The notes below the pieces were generated by a model, which worked only from the letters and a program-made list of their open reading frames with translations, searched no databases and was not told the origin of the DNA. Position numbers and translations under genes: made by a program. A stretch of 44,284 bases of DNA from Bdellovibrionales bacterium (GTDB lineage Bacteria; Bdellovibrionota; Bdellovibrionia; Bdellovibrionales; JAMPXM01), in NCBI GenBank assembly GCA_005808505.1, contig SYLX01000071.1, forward strand, positions 1-44,284. The letters are read 5' to 3'. Below are positions 3,483-13,417 of this stretch, piece by piece; positions within the stretch are counted from its first letter, which is position 1, and each line of letters opens with the position of its first letter.

Positions 3483-6400
3483 ATGTGTCCGACCGATCAT
3501 GATGGAAAGAATGCTAACGAGGGAAAGAAAAAGATTATCTTAGCTACGGCTTCCGTAACGATGCTCATGCAGCAAGCGGCAAGCTTCGGTTTGACACCCG
3601 AGATGGTAGCGAAAGCGTGGAAGAGCCCTGAGTATCGCGCTACTCTCACGGAAGAGCAGCGCAAGCATCTTCCGGCGAATCCCGCAGGTGATCTGAATGT
3701 TCCCCTTATCACACGACACATCAAACATTCGATCGAAGTTGCTGGCACAACGACCTACGCTGATTGCGGAACGACAACTTACGCAGACTGCGGCACAACT
3801 ACTTATGCGGATTGCGGTACCACGACCTATGCCGATTGCGGCACTACGACTTACGCCGATTGCAGCAGCACGCAATTAACAGCCTGTGCGCCCGGCGCCC
3901 TTAAAGCAGAGGGAACACAGAAGCTAGCGGGAACTACAGCTGTAATCGACTGCGGCACGACGGCTGTCATTGATTGCGGAACTACTGCGGTTATCGACTG
4001 TGGAACTACAGCTGTTATTGATTGCGGAACAACAGCAGTCATCGATTGTTCGAGCACACAAGTCGCAGATTGCGCTCCTCAAGCAAAAGCGACGGGTAAG
4101 GGCATTCTTCTCGCTGGCTCAACATCACCAATTGATTGCGGCAGCACATCTCCGATCGATTGTGGAAGTACTTCTCCTATTGATTGCGGAAGCACTTCGC
4201 CAATTGATTGTGGCAGCACTTCGCCCATTGACTGCAGCGGCACTCAGCTCACTGATTGCGCTTCGGTTGGCGCTGCTGGCGAGCGGACGATCACGATTGC
4301 AGGTTCAACTTCTCTAAGCTCCTGCGGCAGCACATCGCTCAGCTCTTGCGGCAGTACTTCGCTAAGCTCTTGCGGTAGCACTTCACTCAGCTCGTGCGGC
4401 AGTACTTCCCTGAGTTCATGCAGCAGCACGGAATTAACCGAGTGTGCACCGAGTGCCGCACAACCCGATAGCAAAACGCTTCTCGCTGGATCAACTGCGT
4501 GGAGTGATTGCAACGCAACTCAACTTCCTGAATGCGCTCCCCTTCTTCGCAAAATTCATGAAACACAGAGTTTCCATTTAGCCGGCACGACGGCACTTCA
4601 CGACTGCGGCACGACTGCTTTGCATGACTGCAGCAGCACGCAGGCTGCTGACTGTGCACCTCAAGTCAATGAGTCGAACGAATCCGAGGGAATGAAGCTC
4701 GCGGGCAACACTTCGGTCTACGATTGCGGGAACACCTCGGTCTATGACTGCGGAAATACCTCAGTCTACGATTGTGGAAACACTTCGGTTTATGACTGCG
4801 GGAATACGTCGGTTTACGATTGTGGGAACACTTCAGTCTATGACTGCAGCAGCACGCAAGTAACCAATTGCGCTCCAGCCATAAAGACAGTGTCAGTCGA
4901 AAAATCATTCAAGCTCGCTGGCTCCACGATGCTCCATGATTGTGGTTCCACAATGTTGCATGATTGCGGCTCGACGATGCTCCATGATTGTGGCTCAACG
5001 ATGCTGCATGACTGCGGTTCGACCATGCTTCACGACTGCAGCAGCACTCAAGTTGCTGACTGCGCTCCCGGAGTTAAAGAGCAGAAAGAAGCTGCAAGCA
5101 TGCAACTCGCAGGCAACACAAACGTGTTCGACTGTGGAAATACGAATGTATTCGATTGCGGTAACACGAACGTCTTTGATTGTGGAAACACGAACGTCTT
5201 CGACTGCGGAAATACCAATGTATTCGATTGCGGTAACACGAACGTTTTCGACTGCAGCAACACTCAGGTAGCGGAGAATGCTCCTCAAGTTAAAGACGCA
5301 ACGGAGAGCATCCAACTCGCTGGTAACACTGGTCTCATGGACTGTGGAAACACGGGTCTCATGGATTGCGGTAACACAGGCTTGATGGACTGTGGAAACA
5401 CGGGCCTCATGGATTGCGGCAATACAGGCTTGATGGATTGCAGCAGCACTCAAATCGGCGAATGCGGCTCACAAGTAGGTCAAGCCGCGAAAGCCGATGA
5501 GCTTAATCTCGCGGGCAACACAGGCTTGAGTGATTGCGGTAATACAGGTCTCAGCGATTGCGGCAACACAGGCTTGAGCGATTGTGGAAATACCGGCCTC
5601 AGTGATTGTGGAAACACTGGCTTGAGCGATTGCAGCAGCACTCAGCTCGCAGACTGCGCTTCGAATCTTAGCCAGGCTGATAAGATCGATGCTTTGAAGC
5701 TTGCTGGTAACACGAGTTTCAGTGACTGCGGCAATACGAGCTTTAGCGATTGCGGCAATACGAGCTTTAGCGACTGTGGAAACACCAGCTTCAGCGATTG
5801 TGGTAACACAAGTTTCAGCGACTGCAGCAGCACGATGCTCACAGAGTGCTCGCCGAGCGTGGCAAGCGCCGATGTGAAACTCATTCAGCTCGCTGGCAAT
5901 ACCGGCCCGATTGATTGTGGCAACACAGGTCCCATCGATTGTGGAAATACCGGCCCCATTGACTGCGGAAACACGGGCCCTATCGATTGCGGCAATACCG
6001 GACCGATTGACTGCAGCAGCACGCAAGTTGCTGACTGTGCGCCGGGAGCGGGTCGCTCAAAATTTGCGTCGGGTCTCCTCGCTGGCTCAACGGGACCTGG
6101 AGATTGTGGATCCACTGGACCTGGTGATTGCGGTTCGACTGGGCCTGGTGATTGCGGCTCAACGGGCCCTGGTGACTGCGGTTCAACCGGACCTGGCGAC
6201 TGCAGCGGCACCCTACTTGCTGAGTGCGCTCCCGGAGTTAGCCCTGCAAAAGCCACAAGCCTCCTCGCCGGCACGACAGGCCTTGGAGACTGCGGAACCA
6301 CGGGCTTAGGAGATTGCGGCACAACAGGTCTCGGAGACTGCGGGACAACCGGCTTAGGCGACTGCGGAACGACAGGCCTTGGCGATTGCAGCAGCACACA

Positions 6401-6770
6401 GATCGGCGCGTGCGCGATTGCTCCGGCTCCGAAGGCAAACGTTGCTGCCCGTAAGGTGCAGTTTGCTCCAACGAAAGCCGCTTTTGCGGAAACTCTTACA
6501 CTGTCGCTGGACACGTTGCTCGCCAAGAACTTGGCCGTTGAATTCCAGCTTCTTCCAGAAGACAAAGGGTTCACGGTCGCGCTTCCGGGCTCGATCCCTA
6601 AGATGGTGAAAGTTGAAACCAAAGGCTTCACGCAGATCGCGGAGTGGACGTTGAGTCAAAGCCAGTTCTCGCTGGCAAATGCTCAAGCGGCTCACCCTGA
6701 GCTTGACGGCAAATCGGTAAAAGACGCCGTTCAAGTCTTGTTCGATCGGGGCCTTGTAACGTTGGCATAA
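3483..6770 (+). CDS. Giant multi-core lanthipeptide precursor: mersacidin-type leader plus 15 blocks of octapeptide repeats
   Basis: 1095 aa. Residues 37-70 match the mersacidin/lichenicidin-type class II leader: A-W-K-S-P-E-Y-R followed by L-T-E-E-Q-R and then L-P-A-N-P-A-G. Residues 88-977 are 70 octapeptides G-[T/S/N]-T-x-x-x-D-C in 15 blocks of identical copies (5,5,5,5,1,2,6,5,6,5,5,5,5,5,5). Each block ends in a cap octad such as S-S-T-Q-V-A-D-C; a 14-16 residue linker then ends in [L/I]-A just before the G of the next block. Every octad has a Thr at position 3 for dehydration and a Cys at position 8 for thioether formation. Residues 978-1095 are a non-repetitive C-terminal domain I do not recognise. 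The ATG follows AGGAG (3471-3475) by 7 nt. No Sec signal is visible. The stop is 7 nt before lanM, which strongly supports a substrate role. A structural repeat protein is the alternative. Confidence 0.85.
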   Translation: MCPTDHDGKNANEGKKKIILATASVTMLMQQAASFGLTPEMVAKAWKSPEYRATLTEEQRKHLPANPAGDLNVPLITRHIKHSIEVAGTTTYADCGTTTYADCGTTTYADCGTTTYADCGTTTYADCSSTQLTACAPGALKAEGTQKLAGTTAVIDCGTTAVIDCGTTAVIDCGTTAVIDCGTTAVIDCSSTQVADCAPQAKATGKGILLAGSTSPIDCGSTSPIDCGSTSPIDCGSTSPIDCGSTSPIDCSGTQLTDCASVGAAGERTITIAGSTSLSSCGSTSLSSCGSTSLSSCGSTSLSSCGSTSLSSCSSTELTECAPSAAQPDSKTLLAGSTAWSDCNATQLPECAPLLRKIHETQSFHLAGTTALHDCGTTALHDCSSTQAADCAPQVNESNESEGMKLAGNTSVYDCGNTSVYDCGNTSVYDCGNTSVYDCGNTSVYDCGNTSVYDCSSTQVTNCAPAIKTVSVEKSFKLAGSTMLHDCGSTMLHDCGSTMLHDCGSTMLHDCGSTMLHDCSSTQVADCAPGVKEQKEAASMQLAGNTNVFDCGNTNVFDCGNTNVFDCGNTNVFDCGNTNVFDCGNTNVFDCSNTQVAENAPQVKDATESIQLAGNTGLMDCGNTGLMDCGNTGLMDCGNTGLMDCGNTGLMDCSSTQIGECGSQVGQAAKADELNLAGNTGLSDCGNTGLSDCGNTGLSDCGNTGLSDCGNTGLSDCSSTQLADCASNLSQADKIDALKLAGNTSFSDCGNTSFSDCGNTSFSDCGNTSFSDCGNTSFSDCSSTMLTECSPSVASADVKLIQLAGNTGPIDCGNTGPIDCGNTGPIDCGNTGPIDCGNTGPIDCSSTQVADCAPGAGRSKFASGLLAGSTGPGDCGSTGPGDCGSTGPGDCGSTGPGDCGSTGPGDCSGTLLAECAPGVSPAKATSLLAGTTGLGDCGTTGLGDCGTTGLGDCGTTGLGDCGTTGLGDCSSTQIGACAIAPAPKANVAARKVQFAPTKAAFAETLTLSLDTLLAKNLAVEFQLLPEDKGFTVALPGSIPKMVKVETKGFTQIAEWTLSQSQFSLANAQAAHPELDGKSVKDAVQVLFDRGLVTLA
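3744..6413 (+). repeat. Coding repeat array: 15 blocks of 24-bp units (70 octads plus 15 caps)
   Basis: Octad blocks (positions; variable residues 4-7): 3744-3863 TYAD x5; 3930-4049 AVID x5; 4116-4235 SPID x5; 4302-4421 SLSS x5; 4488-4511 AWSD x1; 4584-4631 ALHD x2; 4704-4847 SVYD x6; 4920-5039 MLHD x5; 5112-5255 NVFD x6; 5322-5441 GLMD x5; 5514-5633 GLSD x5; 5706-5825 SFSD x5; 5895-6014 GPID x5; 6084-6203 GPGD x5; 6270-6389 GLGD x5. A 24-bp cap octad follows each block. Within a block the amino-acid sequence is identical, while most copies differ at third codon positions. The phase is 24 nt throughout, with no frame disruption. Confidence 0.97.
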
Positions 6771-6777
6771 GGTTCGA

Positions 6778-9630
6778 TTGACAGACTCAAGCCAGTTTCT
6801 CATTCAAGCGGAATCGGAGCTTAACCTCTCCGATCCGCTTTTTTGTTCCAGGACTTTTTCGCGATGGGCGGGCTCAGCATTTGCTGCGCCCGTCATTCCG
6901 TTAGTTCTCTACTTCGCAACCCGCTTGCGCGATCGCTATCGTGCGCTTGAAATTCCGAAATCGGTTTGCGCTTTCGATGAAGAGACTTTCGTCGATACTT
7001 TCCTCCAACATCTCGACAAACGACTCTCGCGTGCCTTGAACCGCACGATCATTCTCGAAATTAACGTTGCGCGAACGCTCGGCGAGCTCACCGGCGAAAC
7101 GCCGGAAGAGCGCTTTGCGGACTTCGTGACGAAGATGAAAGTTCGCGAACGACGCGAACGGTTTTTTGCCGACTATCCCGTGCTGCTTGATGTCCTCAAA
7201 ACGCTTCTTCAAAATTGGTTCGATGCGAGTTCTGAGTTTGCCGAACGTCTCCGCAATGATCATGCGGAACTAGAGTCCACTTTCTCCGAAAGCTTGGGAC
7301 CGCTCATCGGCTTTGCAAACCAGTCGGGAGATTCGCACAATCACGGGCGCAGCGTCTTAATTGCTGTCTTTCAGTCCGGAACACGCGTCGTTTACAAACC
7401 TCACGATGTCGAAGTCGATGTACGATTCCACGAGTTCCTCGGTTGGCTAAAGGAAAAAGGCTTCACCGATCCGTACATCGCAAAAACTCTCGCGAAGAAA
7501 AACTACGGCTGGACCGAGTTCATCTCCTATCTACCGTGCGAAGACGAAAAGGAAGTCGAACTCTTCTACCTCCGCACTGGACAGCTCCTATCCGCCCTTT
7601 ACTTAATCGGTGCAACCGACGTTCACAGCGAAAACTTAATTGCTCGCGGCGGCTACCCCATCGTCGTCGACGTCGAAACTCTTTTTCATCCGCACGTTCA
7701 GCACAGCAATCAACCCTCAGATCAAGACACCGCACGCACGGTGTTCCCGAAACTTTTCATGGGCTCCGTCGTAAAGACCGAACTCATGCCGAAATTGAAA
7801 GGATCATCTCCCGATTCCGCCGCAGATATGAGCGGCCTCGGTGCACAGGCCGGTCAAAAAACCGCGATTCGCGGCCAAGCTGTCTCGGCCGTCGGCACCG
7901 ATGAAGTTCGTGTTGCCGATGCAACTTACACAACTGGCCAGGTGCAAAACCGACCGCGTCTCGAGGGTCAAACTGAAGTTCTCCCGATTCATGGAGATCT
8001 CCTCGTCGAAGGCTTCACCGATGGATACGAGATTCTTCTTGAGAACAAAAGCGAGCTTCGTGAGTTCTTGGATCGTTTCCGTACGATCCAGATCCGTGCG
8101 GTTCCGCGGAACTCTGCTGATTACTTCCAAATTCTCGTTAACAGCTATCACCCTGATGTTTTGGGACAACCCGGTTACCGCGAGCAGGTCACCCATTCGC
8201 TTGAGCCAGCTGCAAAGAACTTTCCGAATTTAGGAAAACTTCTTCCTTCAGAGCGCGCGCAAATTCTTGAAGGCGATATCCCGTACTTCATGACAACACC
8301 AGCATCGACGGATCTTTTAGGTGGCGACGGAACACTCATCAAAGATTGCATCGCCGAATCCGGTTGGAGCATCTTTGAACGCAAGCTCGAACGCTTTGGA
8401 GCTGAAGACTTACGGCTCCAACGTCAGATCCTTCGCGCCTCGATGGCGTCGATGTTTGGCTTCAACACCTATCGTCTTTCTCCAATCAAACTAACGAAGC
8501 CATATGAAACGTATGTTGATGCTGCTCGAGCGATTGCGGATCACTTAAACGAAGCAGCCATTCGTCAAGCCGAGACGCTTACGTGGCTTTCCCTTGAATC
8601 CAAAGGACGACACCAACTTACGAATCAGAACATCTACCAAGTCACGCAAACGGGTCTTGGACTTTACGAAGGCATCACAGGTCTTGGGTTCTTCTTCCAC
8701 GGCCTTTATAAAGTCACAGGTGACGATCAGTATAAAAAAACGGTCGAACAGATTAGTCGCACGCTCGATCACTCACCGGAGTTGATGAATCTCACGCCGA
8801 GTGCATTTAATGGCCTTGGTTCACTCGTTTACTTTTTCTCGCACGTCGGGAGAGTTCCTGCCGTCGAGAATCTTGCGAGTCGCATGGATCCAGCAAAGGC
8901 TGCGAAAGTTCCCGACATTATCTCGGGTCATGCCGGCAGCATTTTAGCTCTTCTTGCTGGCGGTGTTTTAAGTCCAACGAGTTTGAAGAAGGCGATTGAA
9001 TTTGGCGATGCTCTCGTTCGATTCATCGAGCAAGGATCAACTCTTCCTATTCAAAGAGGATTCTCGCACGGCTTTGGCGGACTCGGCTTCGCCCTAGCAA
9101 AACTCGGGGAAAGAACCGGCGAAGAGCGGTTCCTTACGGCATCGCTGAAAGCGTTCGAAAAAGAAGACTCTCTCATCAAAGGTGAGAACTGGACAGATCC
9201 CGATTACTTCAAACAAAACGGCGGACGCCACCAAGCAACTTGGTGCCACGGGCTTCCAGGTCTTGCTCTCGCGCGCATGTCCTCGACAGAGCCCTCAGCA
9301 AACGCTTTTGCGTCTCTAGCTCTCAGTCAGCTGACGGAGGCTTCGGCGAACCACGGCCTCTGTCACGGAGCTCTCGGCAATATCGATGTGCTTATTGAAG
9401 GTGCGAAGCATTTACCGGATGGCGAGCGCTGGATGATGGCCGCGCACAACTGGGGAAAGAAAGCTCTCGTCGAAACGAAAGAGCGGGGCTTGCGAACAGC
9501 GTTCCCATTGTTCTTTGAGAATCCCGGTTTGATGACGGGCTTTGCAGGGATCGGCTACGGATTCTTGCGTCTCGCGCGCCCCGATCTTCCATGCGTCCTC
9601 ACGCTTGAAGGTCCTACCAGGAGCAGGTGA
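6778..9630 (+). CDS. lanM: Class II lanthipeptide synthetase LanM
   Basis: 950 aa, a normal LanM length. The N-terminal dehydratase half (DUF4135, roughly residues 100-460) shows V-Y-K-P with K207, then D281-V-H283-x-x-N286 and D298-V-E300. These correspond to the kinase-like and elimination residues known from CylM, which phosphorylate Ser/Thr and eliminate phosphate to give Dha/Dhb. The C-terminal LanC-like cyclase (about 570-945) has S-H764-G-F-G-G, W-C823-H-G-L-P-G and L-C862-H863-G, giving the three zinc ligands C823, C862 and H863 used to activate Cys thiols. Both activities therefore look intact. The start is TTG 6778, 5 nt after AAGG and 7 nt after the precursor stop, so translational coupling is likely. 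The stop overlaps the next ATG by one base (TGATG). Its likely substrate is the repeat protein encoded immediately upstream. Confidence 0.95.
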   Translation: MTDSSQFLIQAESELNLSDPLFCSRTFSRWAGSAFAAPVIPLVLYFATRLRDRYRALEIPKSVCAFDEETFVDTFLQHLDKRLSRALNRTIILEINVARTLGELTGETPEERFADFVTKMKVRERRERFFADYPVLLDVLKTLLQNWFDASSEFAERLRNDHAELESTFSESLGPLIGFANQSGDSHNHGRSVLIAVFQSGTRVVYKPHDVEVDVRFHEFLGWLKEKGFTDPYIAKTLAKKNYGWTEFISYLPCEDEKEVELFYLRTGQLLSALYLIGATDVHSENLIARGGYPIVVDVETLFHPHVQHSNQPSDQDTARTVFPKLFMGSVVKTELMPKLKGSSPDSAADMSGLGAQAGQKTAIRGQAVSAVGTDEVRVADATYTTGQVQNRPRLEGQTEVLPIHGDLLVEGFTDGYEILLENKSELREFLDRFRTIQIRAVPRNSADYFQILVNSYHPDVLGQPGYREQVTHSLEPAAKNFPNLGKLLPSERAQILEGDIPYFMTTPASTDLLGGDGTLIKDCIAESGWSIFERKLERFGAEDLRLQRQILRASMASMFGFNTYRLSPIKLTKPYETYVDAARAIADHLNEAAIRQAETLTWLSLESKGRHQLTNQNIYQVTQTGLGLYEGITGLGFFFHGLYKVTGDDQYKKTVEQISRTLDHSPELMNLTPSAFNGLGSLVYFFSHVGRVPAVENLASRMDPAKAAKVPDIISGHAGSILALLAGGVLSPTSLKKAIEFGDALVRFIEQGSTLPIQRGFSHGFGGLGFALAKLGERTGEERFLTASLKAFEKEDSLIKGENWTDPDYFKQNGGRHQATWCHGLPGLALARMSSTEPSANAFASLALSQLTEASANHGLCHGALGNIDVLIEGAKHLPDGERWMMAAHNWGKKALVETKERGLRTAFPLFFENPGLMTGFAGIGYGFLRLARPDLPCVLTLEGPTRSR

Positions 9631-10274
9631 TGTCACAAACGCTTCTTTCGGAAAGAACATTCGATACAGACTTGGCCAACTGGTTTGATCCGGTTTCGGC
9701 CCCGTTCTTCCAACAGGCGTACTGGAAGCAGTCTCCTCTCTATATCAAGGGCTCACCGACTCGTTTGGCAAAACTTCGTGAGATCTTTCTCGGCCTTGAT
9801 CTAAATGCACTTTTGCATAGCGCAGGACGAGCCAACGAAAACTGCATTCGCGCTTGGTTTCTCAACAACGGCAAAACCGATACGAGGCTAACGGCTCAAC
9901 CGGCCCAAGCTTTGATTTTGTTCGATGCGAACTTCACTCTTTATTTTGAACCTAAGACGCCCGCTGTCCTCGATTTTGTACGCGAACTCATGCTTAAGTC
10001 CGGTAATTCCGTGGAAGCGGCGATGGTGAGTATCTTCGCTAGCAAAAAAGCACATTTCACAGCAACTCACGTCGACAACAACGAGAACTTTACGATCCAG
10101 CTCCAAGGTCGCAAAGAGTGGACCGTGGGGCATGACGAAGCGGTCGCAGATCAAAAGTTCATCCTGGCACCGGGCGATCTTCTTTACTGTCCAGGTCCTT
10201 GGCGTCATTCGGTGCTAGCACTAGAAGACAGCATTTCGCTCAATCTGAACTTCATCAAAAAGCGTGAGAGCTAA
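9630..10274 (+). CDS. JmjC/cupin-like Fe(II)/2-oxoglutarate oxygenase in the lanthipeptide operon
   Basis: 214 aa. The double-stranded beta-helix metal triad is visible: H147-V-D149 in a T-H-V-D-N-N-E-N-F segment and H193 in P-W-R-H-S. The G-D-L-L-Y-C-P-G-P-W-R-H context is typical of bacterial cupin-like/JmjC hydroxylases (the ROXA-type family that hydroxylates protein side chains). The ATG at 9630 follows AGGAG (9619-9623) by 6 nt; a GTG three bases upstream is less well placed. The gene overlaps the lanM stop by 1 nt and the next ATG by 1 nt. By position it is a tailoring enzyme of the lanthipeptide; the near-invariant Asp next to the Cys of each octad is an attractive target by analogy with Asp hydroxylation in duramycin-type lanthipeptides, but that is inference. 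The N-terminal 60 residues show no motif I know. Confidence 0.8.
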   Translation: MSQTLLSERTFDTDLANWFDPVSAPFFQQAYWKQSPLYIKGSPTRLAKLREIFLGLDLNALLHSAGRANENCIRAWFLNNGKTDTRLTAQPAQALILFDANFTLYFEPKTPAVLDFVRELMLKSGNSVEAAMVSIFASKKAHFTATHVDNNENFTIQLQGRKEWTVGHDEAVADQKFILAPGDLLYCPGPWRHSVLALEDSISLNLNFIKKRES

Positions 10275-12409
10275 TGAGACTCGCATTCTTTGTCTTCATT
10301 GCTCTCCTTCCCCAGCTCTCACTGGCCGTAAGCTCCTTCGACTGCGAGAGAGTCAGCGCCGGACCATCACGGCCCGCGAAGACATTTGCGCACGCTCTCT
10401 CAAACGCCCACGCGGAGATTCGATTTTTTGGCACGCACGATGAGTATGCGGTAGCCGATCAAGCCCTCGCGCGCATTTTAGATCACGCAGATCCGCTCCA
10501 AGTCTTCGACCTTCGTGAGTACGCACAAGCTTTGGTTGATGCTTGCTCATTACCCGCTAGCCCCAGCGAACTCTCCGTAGCTCACATAGAGATGCGCGGC
10601 AACGTCGCCTGGATTCGCCCAGGTAAAGGTGAAGTCCAAATCCCTCGCGAAACACGTGCGGCCGTCATCGACTTAAACGGTCTGCCGGACTCACCTGAAG
10701 TGGAGACGGCATTGCGTTCTCTGCTCGAGAAACTTCTCGACCAACAAGTTGCAATGCCCATGCGGAGTGTTCGTAAACATGTAGGCCTTACGGATGAGGG
10801 ATTCCGCTCAGGACAAGTCACGTACCGAAACGAAGTGAGCGCTTTGAATCAAACACCATTGAGTGGCTCTCGTTTGGCGACTCTTCCTTTAGCTTTTCTC
10901 GTTGGGAAGAAGTTAGCGCCGAAAGCCGCCGAGATCGCCGCCACTTTGCGACTGAATAATCGAGCCTGGATTATTGGCGAATCAATTCCGACCGGCATTG
11001 CTGAACTCCGTTGGCTTTCGGTTGGAACCTCCGGCATCAGCTACCGTGCGACTGATCTCAAGCTTCGCGAAAGGCGCTTGCCCGATGAGATTCGTCCTGA
11101 TTTCACCGTTGATCAGCTGACCACACTAGATGTCACAAAGCTTGGTCAGCCTCCCTCAATAAGAGTTCTAGCTTCGGAAGGCAAACGGCCGCGCATCAAA
11201 GCCATCGCTCCATTTGGCAAAACGCAGGCTCCGCTCAATCCTCTCGGCGACCTACGTGCGGCGCTTCTCATCGCGCACGGCACTTCTCATCTTTTTTATC
11301 CGAAGCTGCCGGCAGGTCGCCGCATCCGGTTCGATGAGCGACTTCTTGAAGTTCTTGCTCATGCTCCCACGGACAGCCGGGATCGCGTAAGTTTCCGCAA
11401 CTCACTTCGCTCACTTGGCGAGGCTCTGCGTGATGGACACAACTATGTCTATGATCGCACGTACCGAATTGCTCCTGAAGGTGCGGGCTTTCTGCCGATT
11501 CATTTCGACTTCGATGGTACTTATCCGGTCGTTGCGGCTTCAGCTGCTGAAGGTGCGATACCGGGCGATCGCCTCGTGCGCATCGACGATGAAGACGCAA
11601 GAAGCTGGCTTAGCACCGAAGCCAAGCGAACTTCTGCTGGGGGTTCAGGTTACAAAATCGAACGAGCCTTGCGCGAACTTCAAATCCAAACAGGAAGTCG
11701 CAAGTTCCAATTCCTCAGCCCATCCGGTGACCTGAAGACATTGGAGCTATCCCCGTCGACTCTCGAAACATTCTCGGCACTCAAACGTTATGATTACGTG
11801 AGACCTTCCGGCTGGCTCTCTGAATATAACGCAAGCGATGTGTTTTACCTGAATGCCTCAAGCCACGTGCTGCCTGACCTCACGGCTCTAGATCAACTTC
11901 TGACTGACGCGAAGTCGGCTCGCGCGCTAATTATCGACGTGCGCACATCGCCAAAGATCAACGCGATGGCCCTAGCTGCACGGTTGATTCCTCGTGAGTT
12001 TAAGGGACCTCTGTATCTGACGCCGGTTTGGAATGGACCTGGTGAAAGCTCTGACCTCATCGAACCGCAACGGAACTTCAAACAGTCGCCGATGGCGTTC
12101 ACTGGCCAAATCATTCTTCTCACCGGTCCACTCACGGTTTCTGCAGCTGAAAACGTCGCGACCTATCTTGCCGATGCGGGTCGTGTAACGATCGTAGGTC
12201 GCCCCTCCGCGGGCACGAATGGATCGATGTCAGGATTGCAGCTTCCGGGGCAGTTCTTGTTCACGATTACCGCAATGAAAGTTCAACACGCGAATGGTGA
12301 GTTGTATCGCGGCCTCAGACCCGACGTGCTTGCTCAGCCGACCTACTTGCACTTTGGTGCAGGTCGAGACGCGGAACTTGAACAAGCGGTTGAAGTAGCT
12401 CGCAAATAA
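10274..12409 (+). CDS. Secreted S41 family (tail-specific/tricorn-like) serine protease
   Basis: 711 aa with a clear Sec signal peptide (M-R-L-A-F-F-V-F-I-A-L-L... cleaved near residues 18-20), so the enzyme should act in the periplasm or outside. The C-terminal third is an S41 peptidase: a PDZ-like stretch around residues 410-460 (P-G-D-R-L-V-R-I-D-D), the nucleophile S623 in L-T-V-S-A-A-E-N and the G-R-P-S-A-G-T-N-G turn. H389 lies in L-R-D-G-H-N, a His seen in S41 subfamilies with a Ser-His catalytic arrangement rather than the CtpA Ser-Lys dyad. The first ~350 residues are not recognisable. The ATG overlaps the oxygenase stop (TAATG), so it is the last gene of the operon. A role in cutting the modified precursor, perhaps after the repeated L-A sites, is a hypothesis. 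The gene converges with the LLM gene, 3 bp apart. Confidence 0.8.
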   Translation: MRLAFFVFIALLPQLSLAVSSFDCERVSAGPSRPAKTFAHALSNAHAEIRFFGTHDEYAVADQALARILDHADPLQVFDLREYAQALVDACSLPASPSELSVAHIEMRGNVAWIRPGKGEVQIPRETRAAVIDLNGLPDSPEVETALRSLLEKLLDQQVAMPMRSVRKHVGLTDEGFRSGQVTYRNEVSALNQTPLSGSRLATLPLAFLVGKKLAPKAAEIAATLRLNNRAWIIGESIPTGIAELRWLSVGTSGISYRATDLKLRERRLPDEIRPDFTVDQLTTLDVTKLGQPPSIRVLASEGKRPRIKAIAPFGKTQAPLNPLGDLRAALLIAHGTSHLFYPKLPAGRRIRFDERLLEVLAHAPTDSRDRVSFRNSLRSLGEALRDGHNYVYDRTYRIAPEGAGFLPIHFDFDGTYPVVAASAAEGAIPGDRLVRIDDEDARSWLSTEAKRTSAGGSGYKIERALRELQIQTGSRKFQFLSPSGDLKTLELSPSTLETFSALKRYDYVRPSGWLSEYNASDVFYLNASSHVLPDLTALDQLLTDAKSARALIIDVRTSPKINAMALAARLIPREFKGPLYLTPVWNGPGESSDLIEPQRNFKQSPMAFTGQIILLTGPLTVSAAENVATYLADAGRVTIVGRPSAGTNGSMSGLQLPGQFLFTITAMKVQHANGELYRGLRPDVLAQPTYLHFGAGRDAELEQAVEVARK

Positions 12410-12412
12410 CGA

Positions 12413-13417
12413 TCAGCTGAGCGCCTTCGCCTGCGCGATGTACTCGTAAGAGCGCATTCGATCCGTATGTTCGTAGGTATCTGAAGTGATGATGAGTTCA
12501 TCTGCACCCGTCCGGCGAAGGAGCTCATCTAGATCGCGTCGAACTTTTGCGGGCCCACCGGTTACCATCAAACCCAACATTGATTGCACGGCCGACTTCT
12601 CGCGCTCGGTCCACATCAAATCCATGCTCTGAACCGGTGGCTTCGAAAGACTTCGATCCCCGCGCACTAAGCCTAAGAAGGCTTGTTGAACGCTTGTCGC
12701 AAGGTACGCGGCTTGTTCATCACTTTCGGCCGCGATCACCGGAACACCTGCAATTACGTAGGGTTTATCAAGCACGGCTGATGGTTGGAACTGGTGACGG
12801 TAGATTTCAAAGGCTTCGATCATATCCGCTGGAGCAAAGTGTCCGGCGAATGCGTAAGGGCGACCTAGCCGTGCCGCAAGTTGAGCGCTAAAGAGGCTAG
12901 AGCCAAGGATGTAAATCGGCACGTTGATACCCGTTCCAGGAATCGCGCGAACTTGCTGACCTGGCTGGGCGGGCGCGAAGTAAAAAAGAAGCTCTTCGAT
13001 GAGTTCACCAAAATCAGCGCCGAAGTTGGATTGATCACGTCTCAACGCCCGCATCGTTTGGCGATCGGTCCCGGGCGCGCGGCCCAGCCCGAGATCGATT
13101 CGATTAGGATAGAGAGTCGCGAGCGTCCCGAACTGTTCAGCAATAACGAGAGGCGCGTGATTTGGAAGCATAATTCCGCCCGAGCCTACGCGAATCGTTT
13201 TCGTGTGCTCGGCGATGTGTCCGATGAGTACAGAGGTCGCGGCACTTGCGATGCCCTCAAGGTTGTGGTGCTCGGCCAACCAAAACCGTTGGTAACCGAG
13301 ACGCTCCACTTGTTGGGCAAGCTCGCGCGATTGCTTGTATGTCTCAGCGATCGTTTGACCTTGCGAGACCTTGGCTAAATCAAGAACTGATAAGGAGACC
13401 TGCGCAAGAGTTTTCAT
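12413..13417 (-). CDS. LLM class flavin-dependent oxidoreductase (luciferase-like monooxygenase)
   Basis: 334 aa. The N-terminus shows the bacterial luciferase-like TIM-barrel pattern: S-L-S-V-L-D-L, then R-F-W-L-A-E-H-H-N near residue 45, [13 protein letters not shown] near 80 and D-L-G-L-G-R-A-P-G near 105. This is the subgroup annotated MsnO8 or YhbW-like. These enzymes use reduced FMN to oxidise small molecules; the substrate here cannot be told. The predicted protein is cytoplasmic. It is convergent with the S41 protease gene and divergent from the PadR regulator gene across about 220 bp. Its ATG has only a weak upstream G-rich stretch as ribosome binding site. Confidence 0.88.

What the first reader, a model, noticed from the sequence alone, without database searches (positions are those of the whole stretch)
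3483..12409. A giant multi-core lanthipeptide operon: 70 octapeptides in one 1095-aa precursor next to LanM
The precursor has a mersacidin/lichenicidin-type leader (A-W-K-S-P-E-Y-R ... L-P-A-N-P-A-G), 15 blocks of G-x-T-x-x-x-D-C repeats and a LanM gene 7 nt downstream, then an oxygenase and a protease with overlapping genes. Class II precursors are normally under about 100 residues with one core. Seventy Thr/Cys octads in one chain would be an extreme multi-core RiPP, possibly yielding 15 products or one long thioether-linked polymer. I know of no described case.
Basis: partly seen in the sequence, partly recalled or inferred. Interest (0 to 1): 0.97.

Follow-up and report, generated by a model that had tools for sequence, protein, structure and literature searches.

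The report
Giant 15-block lanthipeptide precursor operon
One bacterial gene strings 15 blocks of eight-residue threonine/cysteine units behind a single lantibiotic-type leader, directly upstream of a gene for a lanthipeptide-making enzyme that is predicted to close up to 84 thioether rings in the chain, which would likely then be cut into about 15 different ring-chain peptides; single precursors of that kind would be new for this class of natural product.

Summary
Observation confirmed and extended. ORF 3483-6770 (1095 aa) has a mersacidin/lichenicidin-type leader over the family cut-off, then 15 blocks: 70 octads GxTxxx(D/S)C, identical within each block, each block closed by one divergent octad (SSTQVADC-like); 85 octads, 84 with Cys. 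LanM follows after 7 nt, then a JmjC-type oxygenase and an S41 protease. The same genome holds a second LanM with three tandem short precursors (one cut by a contig end) of the same design: leader, about five copies of a 7-residue unit, one cap. Thr-X4-Cys spacing is shared by octads, heptads and caps while the linker between rings changes length: the ring is the conserved element. Non-terminal octads of each block are identical in protein, yet all 85 octads differ in DNA, and synonymous divergence within blocks is about that between blocks, which points to selection rather than DNA homogenisation. Mersacidin-type cores found in 56 of 80 surveyed LanM loci are at most 150 aa with at most 11 Cys. 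A July 2026 paper says multi-core precursors have not been reported for lanthipeptides. Most likely a multi-core class II lanthipeptide precursor giving about 15 multi-ring products. Rings, cleavage and function are untested.

The parts
3483..3743 (+). Leader (residues 1-87): basic/hydrophobic start KKKIILATASVTML, mersacidin-type motif AWKSPEYRATLTEEQRKHLPANPAG, then SIEVA before the first core
   Evidence: TIGR03898 35.0 bits vs cut-off 23.5, residues 44-71; 47% identical over 79 residues to a C43 precursor
3744..3887 (+). Block 1: GTTTYADC x5 + cap SSTQLTAC
3930..4073 (+). Block 2: GTTAVIDC x5 + SSTQVADC
4116..4259 (+). Block 3: GSTSPIDC x5 + SGTQLTDC
4302..4445 (+). Block 4: GSTSLSSC x5 + SSTELTEC (no Asp before Cys in the five)
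4488..4535 (+). Block 5: GSTAWSDC x1 + NATQLPEC
4584..4655 (+). Block 6: GTTALHDC x2 + SSTQAADC
4704..4871 (+). Block 7: GNTSVYDC x6 + SSTQVTNC
4920..5063 (+). Block 8: GSTMLHDC x5 + SSTQVADC
5112..5279 (+). Block 9: GNTNVFDC x6 + SNTQVAEN (cap without Cys)
5322..5465 (+). Block 10: GNTGLMDC x5 + SSTQIGEC
5514..5657 (+). Block 11: GNTGLSDC x5 + SSTQLADC
5706..5849 (+). Block 12: GNTSFSDC x5 + SSTMLTEC
5895..6038 (+). Block 13: GNTGPIDC x5 + SSTQVADC
6084..6227 (+). Block 14: GSTGPGDC x5 + SGTLLAEC
6270..6413 (+). Block 15: GTTGLGDC x5 + SSTQIGAC. The 14 spacers between blocks are 14-16 aa, and all 14 end in (L/I)A before the G of the next block
6414..6767 (+). C-terminal tail, 118 aa without Cys; unidentified
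   Evidence: no Pfam match at E<=5; only one insignificant PDB hit, E 0.79; single-sequence model pLDDT 38.6
6778..9630 (+). LanM, class II lanthipeptide synthetase (950 aa, TTG start)
   Evidence: TIGR03897 698.7 bits, DUF4135 and LANC_like over cut-off; solved relatives LicM2 and CylM
9627..10274 (+). JmjC/cupin-type putative 2-oxoglutarate oxygenase (215 aa); a search with this protein found no second copy in its genome
   Evidence: JmjC_2 and Cupin_8 over cut-off; YxbC and NO66 family among solved relatives
10274..12409 (+). S41-family protease with N-terminal signal-like segment (711 aa); 35% paralogue on contig C72 next to another precursor leader
   Evidence: Peptidase_S41 54 bits

Best explanation
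The 1095-residue protein is most likely a multi-core class II lanthipeptide precursor: the adjacent LanM is predicted to bind its single leader, dehydrate the Thr of each octad and close it onto the Cys five residues on, giving up to 84 methyllanthionine rings, and the chain would then be cut at the (V/L/I)A-G block starts into about 15 peptides, each a row of identical rings ended by one different ring. Shown: leader, LanM, operon, block structure, T-X4-C spacing, and the single-block precursors beside a second LanM. Inferred: that LanM modifies the blocks; that each block is one product; that the JmjC enzyme oxidises the Asp before Cys; that export uses the Sec-like N-terminus and the S41 protease matures the chain. 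The products would be a set of 15 periodic lanthipeptides differing in ring residues 4-6, possibly antibacterial or surface-binding; that function is a guess.
For: Leader over cut-off in the protein itself and LanM 7 nt downstream. An own-genome leader search gave three hits over the cut-off: this protein and two on contig C43. C43 carries a second LanM with leader + TQYMGC x5 + STQFESC-SG and leader + STSWQGC x5 + STQFESC-MA, plus the tail of a third...QTSGWGC-ETSGWGC-ETSGWGC-STQFESC-MA: single-block forms ending just after the cap. The first giant block and one C43 precursor share SIEVAG before the core. Non-terminal octads identical in 15 of 15 blocks against at least 157 synonymous changes. 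C823, C862, H863 (cyclase metal ligands, role recalled) are invariant and K207, D281, H283, N286, D298 (dehydratase site, recalled) nearly invariant in the 12-sequence alignment. The S41 protease has one near-full-length paralogue in the genome, next to another such leader, and no full-length relative in the other 58 of 59 genomes searched.
Against: No mass data, so no ring is shown. LanM would have to reach cores up to about 900 residues from one leader. No GG/GA site at the core border, and no LanT recognised: the C39 search gave one fragment over cut-off (25.1 bits) and one below (21 bits); read out, the first is an 82-aa frame at the edge of the locus that ends shortly after the C39 part, the second a stand-alone 261-aa frame, neither with room for or sign of an ABC transporter part (by eye). 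The genome is a draft (93% complete). Two blocks are short (1 and 2 units) and one cap lacks Cys. In the C43 heptads the linker residue varies (G/D, Q/E), so unit identity is not absolute there. No homologue of the giant was found. S41 as a between-block cutter is weakened because its paralogue seems to lie with another precursor. The hydropathy measure behind 'Sec-like' is crude: LanM itself scores as high (2.32) near residue 34.
Confidence: 0.6

Rival explanations
1. LanM makes the rings, but the chain stays whole: one long secreted thioether-ring polymer with 15 ring segments joined by flexible spacers, working as a structural or adhesive surface protein.
For: Identical units within blocks despite near-saturated synonymous change fit a periodic structure; spacers vary in sequence; there is a 118-aa tail of unknown role; no LanT-type cutter was recognised.
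Against: The second locus makes separate single-block precursors ending right after the cap, and all 14 spacers end in (L/I)A-G, like the leader/core border of the short precursors, VA-G and IA-S.
Confidence: 0.2
2. Each octad, not each block, is a core: LanM closes the rings and proteases free many copies of 15 kinds of cyclic octapeptide.
For: Octads are contiguous and identical within blocks, like repeated cores in fungal dikaritin and epichloecyclin precursors (PMC9233826 passages).
Against: No recognition sequence between octads; each block ends in a different unit (15 of 15); under mere dosage, single variant units should be tolerated, but none is seen among the non-terminal octads.
Confidence: 0.1
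3. Unmodified Cys-rich repeat protein (disulfide or metal binding, or solenoid) that only carries a lantibiotic-type leader.
For: Regular Cys spacing; AlphaFold2 on blocks 1-4 draws some short strands.
Against: That model has mean pLDDT 36.9 and is uninformative. LanM is 7 nt away, and what octads and heptads share is the T-to-C step, not the period.
Confidence: 0.07

Closest known systems
Class II lanthipeptides of the mersacidin/lichenicidin type (TIGR03898 precursor, TIGR03897 LanM)
   Same: Leader family, LanM type, Thr/Cys cores
   Different: 1095 aa with 15 blocks and 84 potential rings; one mining study reports precursors of 29-100 aa, at most 7 known and 8 predicted bridges, with tandem duplication in some (PMC11251773 passages); no LanT and no GG site recognised here
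Multi-core RiPPs: three-core microviridin AMdnA, cyanobactins, plant cyclotides and orbitides, fungal ustiloxins/phomopsins (dikaritins) and epichloecyclins
   Same: Several cores in one precursor chain, cut into several products (PMC5934393 and PMC9233826 passages)
   Different: Other chemistries, not LanM; [quoted passage not shown]
Plesiocin (four repeated units cyclised by PsnB; named in a passage of PMC5934393)
   Same: Repeated ring units in one peptide
   Different: ATP-grasp enzyme instead of LanM (same passages), four units; ester rings are recalled
Prochlorosins (solitary promiscuous ProcM-type enzyme; abstract start of PMC10783134; many separate substrates recalled)
   Same: One LanM-type enzyme and a set of varied products
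   Different: Separate genes for the precursors, not one fused chain

Membership tests
Class II lanthipeptide precursor, mersacidin/lichenicidin type | Leader matches TIGR03898 over cut-off | tested here: met
   35.0 vs 23.5 bits; 40.1 bits in the genome search
Class II lanthipeptide precursor, mersacidin/lichenicidin type | LanM encoded next to it | tested here: met
   LanM 7 nt downstream, TIGR03897 698.7 bits
Class II lanthipeptide precursor, mersacidin/lichenicidin type | Core with Ser/Thr paired to Cys | tested here: met
   T-X4-C in 84 of 85 octads
Class II lanthipeptide precursor, mersacidin/lichenicidin type | Short, single-core precursor | tested here: not met
   1095 aa, 15 blocks; 75 leader hits in 56 of 80 LanM loci have cores of median 47, at most 150 aa
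Class II lanthipeptide precursor, mersacidin/lichenicidin type | Leader removed by a C39 LanT at GG/GA (recalled as usual for class II) | tested here: inconclusive
   VA-G or (L/I)A-G instead of GG/GA; C39 search: one fragment over and one under cut-off, neither with an ABC part as read; draft genome
Lanthipeptide | (Methyl)lanthionine present in the product | not testable with these tools
   Needs mass spectrometry
LanM (class II synthetase) | DUF4135 dehydratase plus LanC cyclase domain, over the family cut-off | tested here: met
   LicM2 and CylM are the two solved relatives
LanM (class II synthetase) | Cyclase metal ligands and dehydratase residues kept | tested here: met
   C823, C862, H863 invariant; K207, D281, H283, N286, D298 nearly invariant in 12 sequences, one of them an N-terminally short fragment; their roles are recalled
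Multi-core RiPP precursor | Several cores under one leader, with repeated flanking sequences | tested here: met
   15 blocks, all 14 spacers end (L/I)A before G; single-block counterparts on C43
Multi-core RiPP precursor | Release of several products | not testable with these tools
   Needs product analysis

The most novel reading that the evidence does not exclude
The first multi-core lanthipeptide precursor: one gene encodes a library of 15 periodic lanthipeptides, most of them a row of five or six identical methyllanthionine rings plus a distinct end ring, up to 84 thioether rings installed in one chain under one leader. Selection for identical rings within a product, not gene conversion, keeps the units alike, which would make it a new architecture: repeating-ring, multivalent lanthipeptides or a genetically encoded thioether polymer.
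Probability: 0.6. Interest if true: 0.95.

Novelty: new variant of a known kind. Interest (0 to 1): 0.9.

Why it matters
If LanM modifies this chain, up to 84 rings would be installed from one leader, about ten times the seven known or eight predicted bridges given in PMC11251773 (passages), which tests how far leader-guided modification can reach. It would bring the multi-core strategy to lanthipeptides, and give a natural template for cassette libraries of ring peptides and for thioether polymers. It also shows how such systems can be missed: one large mining run discarded candidate ORFs longer than 120 aa (PMC7268733 passage), a limit that would also drop the 121- and 122-aa single-block precursors found here.

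Tried and rejected
Homologues of the giant precursor: genome-contig scan found none; the protein search gave one hit at E 9e-4, which I judge spurious (a protein with unrelated LRR/Roc-type domains, names recalled from the Pfam accessions; only the 7989 candidates sharing most words were scored); a leader-only search found 112 candidates and none at E<=10; viral contigs none. Matches in four other genomes of 196 are 36-50 residues long and lie on short perfect DNA repeats; judged unrelated.

LLM oxidoreductase 12413-13417 as a LanJ-type reductase: rejected, it has strong matches in many relatives (18 of 59 genomes with any match, own included) although no full LanM was found in the phylum outside this genome, and it lies on the other strand.

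The idea that the S41 protease is there only because the giant has many blocks was dropped after its 35% paralogue turned up on C72 beside another leader. C72 and C43 may be neighbours, but their ends show no exact overlap of 10 nt or more, so this stays a guess.

C-terminal tail as a docking or winged-helix domain: no support. AlphaFold2 on blocks 1-4 as a test for a solenoid: uninformative. Active selection for codon dispersal: not needed, since synonymous difference (5.04 of 24) is below full randomisation (5.69; 2000 of 2000 simulations with the gene's own codon usage, 1998 of 2000 with that of the neighbouring genes, reach the observed value).

I also retested block identity with blocks bounded by spacers instead of by identity, because blocks were defined as runs of identical octads.
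Full report
WHAT IS THERE. ORF 3483-6770 encodes 1095 aa. Its residues 44-71 match the mersacidin/lichenicidin leader family TIGR03898 at 35.0 bits against a cut-off of 23.5; Pfam has no match to the protein at E<=0.001. After the leader come 15 blocks. Bounded by the spacers, each block repeats one octad GxTxxx(D/S)C exactly and ends with a different octad, usually SSTQxxxC: non-terminal octads are identical in 15 of 15 blocks (in block 5 there is only one), and the terminal one differs in 15 of 15. Copies are 5,5,5,5,1,2,6,5,6,5,5,5,5,5,5, 70 in all, plus 15 caps: 85 octads with Thr at position 3 in all 85 and Cys at position 8 in 84. The 14 spacers are 14-16 aa and all 14 end in (L/I)A before the G of the next block. 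A 118-aa Cys-free tail closes the protein; no relative was identified.

OPERON. LanM starts 7 nt after the precursor stop and scores 698.7 bits against TIGR03897 (cut-off 304); its solved relatives are LicM2 and CylM. A JmjC/cupin oxygenase overlaps it by 4 nt and an S41 protease overlaps that by 1 nt. The JmjC protein is related to YxbC and NO66-type hydroxylases. The luciferase-like gene downstream lies on the other strand, has relatives in many genomes of the lineage, and is judged not part of the operon.

A SECOND, SMALLER COPY OF THE DESIGN. The same genome has a second LanM on contig C43 (33% identical). Just upstream lie two complete precursors of 122 and 121 aa: leader + (G/D)TQYMGC x5 + STQFESC-SG, and leader + STSWQGC x5 + STQFESC-MA. 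The contig end holds the tail of a third, with QTSGWGC/ETSGWGC units and the same STQFESC-MA end. Contig C72 ends inside another such leader, next to a 35% paralogue of the S41 protease. So the recipe 'leader, about five like units, one different cap' recurs, and the giant reads as 15 such cores fused behind one leader. A search with the JmjC protein found no second copy in the genome, and the heptads have no Asp before Cys, which fits, weakly, a role on that Asp.

THE RING IS THE CONSERVED ELEMENT. Only the linker changes (two residues or one; in the heptads its residue varies, G/D and Q/E). That is what one expects if LanM closes a Thr-to-Cys methyllanthionine in every unit; a fixed-period solenoid would not need it.

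SELECTION ON IDENTICAL UNITS. Take the 14 blocks with at least two non-terminal octads (69 units, caps and block 5 left out; 141 pairs). No amino acid differs, yet no two units share the same DNA; mean 5.04 differences in 24 nt, at least 157 changes, all synonymous, where about 23% of random single changes would be. One search took blocks as runs of identical octads, which makes the zero partly circular; therefore used spacer-bounded blocks and found the same. The caps are excluded by position, always last. All 85 octads, caps included, are distinct in DNA. Synonymous codon differences within a block are about as large as between blocks (G 0.688/0.687, T 0.681/0.752, D 0.546/0.485, C 0.440/0.399). 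The total is a little below full randomisation (5.04 against 5.69), so some trace of kinship within blocks remains, but recent gene conversion cannot explain the identity. I infer that the product needs identical rings within a block, which favours the block as one molecule over octads as dose copies.

HOW UNUSUAL. Of these 80, 56 carry a leader similar to this one (75 hits at tblastn E<=0.01); cores run to a median of 47 and a maximum of 150 aa, with at most 11 Cys. In whole genomes of 50 of these 80 loci, 46 had TIGR03898 matches; the open frames listed reach 467 aa. I fetched six of the long ones; in all six the part after the leader motif was at most about 150 aa, and the rest of the frame lay upstream of it or belonged to the leader. 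In 368 genomes of the window's phylum a search with this LanM found full-length LanM only in its own genome. The closest LanMs elsewhere are a 600-aa fragment from a JGI source (90% identical) and a 924-aa protein on a 17-kb contig (54%); the next are 36% or less.

LITERATURE. PMC13343206 (July 2026; [quoted passage not shown] PMC11251773 (passages): precursors 29-100 aa, known maximum seven bridges, predicted eight, tandem duplication in some peptides. PMC7268733 (passages): candidate ORFs longer than 120 aa were discarded. PMC8692599 (passages) gave nothing on this system. My searches (open-licence PMC only) listed no paper whose title or abstract start described a multi-core lanthipeptide; most hits were not opened.

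MECHANISM, STEP BY STEP. Shown by sequence: leader, LanM, block design, T-X4-C. Inferred: LanM ring closure; Asp oxidation by the JmjC enzyme; export through the basic/hydrophobic N-terminus that all four leaders share, a weak argument since the same crude hydropathy measure also gives LanM 2.32 against 2.19-2.32 for the three leaders measured; maturation by the S41 protease; cuts at (V/L/I)A-G. No LanT was recognised: of two C39 hits one is over its cut-off (25.1 bits) and one under, and neither frame carries an ABC transporter part. The function of the products is unknown; a set of 15 ring variants suggests diversified targets.

CAVEATS. The genome is a draft (93% complete, 7% contamination). 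The window's DEAD-box helicase gene is 70% identical to its best match outside the genome, in a same-family genome (59 genomes of the lineage searched, none outside), so the contig fits the lineage. The longest exact repeat in the precursor gene is 29 nt, so misassembly of the array is unlikely but not excluded.

Noticed in passing
L016 (contig C43) 12599-16600: Second LanM with three tandem repeat-core precursors, one cut by the contig end; single-block form of the same design.
   Followed up: yes
L113 (contig C72) 1-2530: S41 protease paralogue (35%) next to another mersacidin-type leader that runs off the contig; C72 may adjoin C43, not proven.
   Followed up: partly
L073 16116-17363 and 18538-20889: Thermoanaerobaculum MAG: 415-aa TQCGGIHTCG Thr/Cys repeat protein near a second protein with LanC-like motifs (by eye), beside an ordinary class II cluster; another possible long repeat substrate.
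   Followed up: no
L055, frame near 8981: Ordinary-size precursor whose core holds two tandem copies of a 16-residue Thr/Cys unit (TTAITCTATLGGCCPA, second copy with small changes).
   Followed up: no
window 3744-6413: Neighbouring octads differ more at DNA level than units two apart (5.47 vs 4.44 of 24; 11 of 2000 within-column shuffles reach the neighbour value): old duplication in pairs, or selection against adjacent repeats.
   Followed up: partly
window 5256-5279: Cap of block 9 has Asn in place of Cys; that block has six main octads, so it still holds six possible rings.
   Followed up: no
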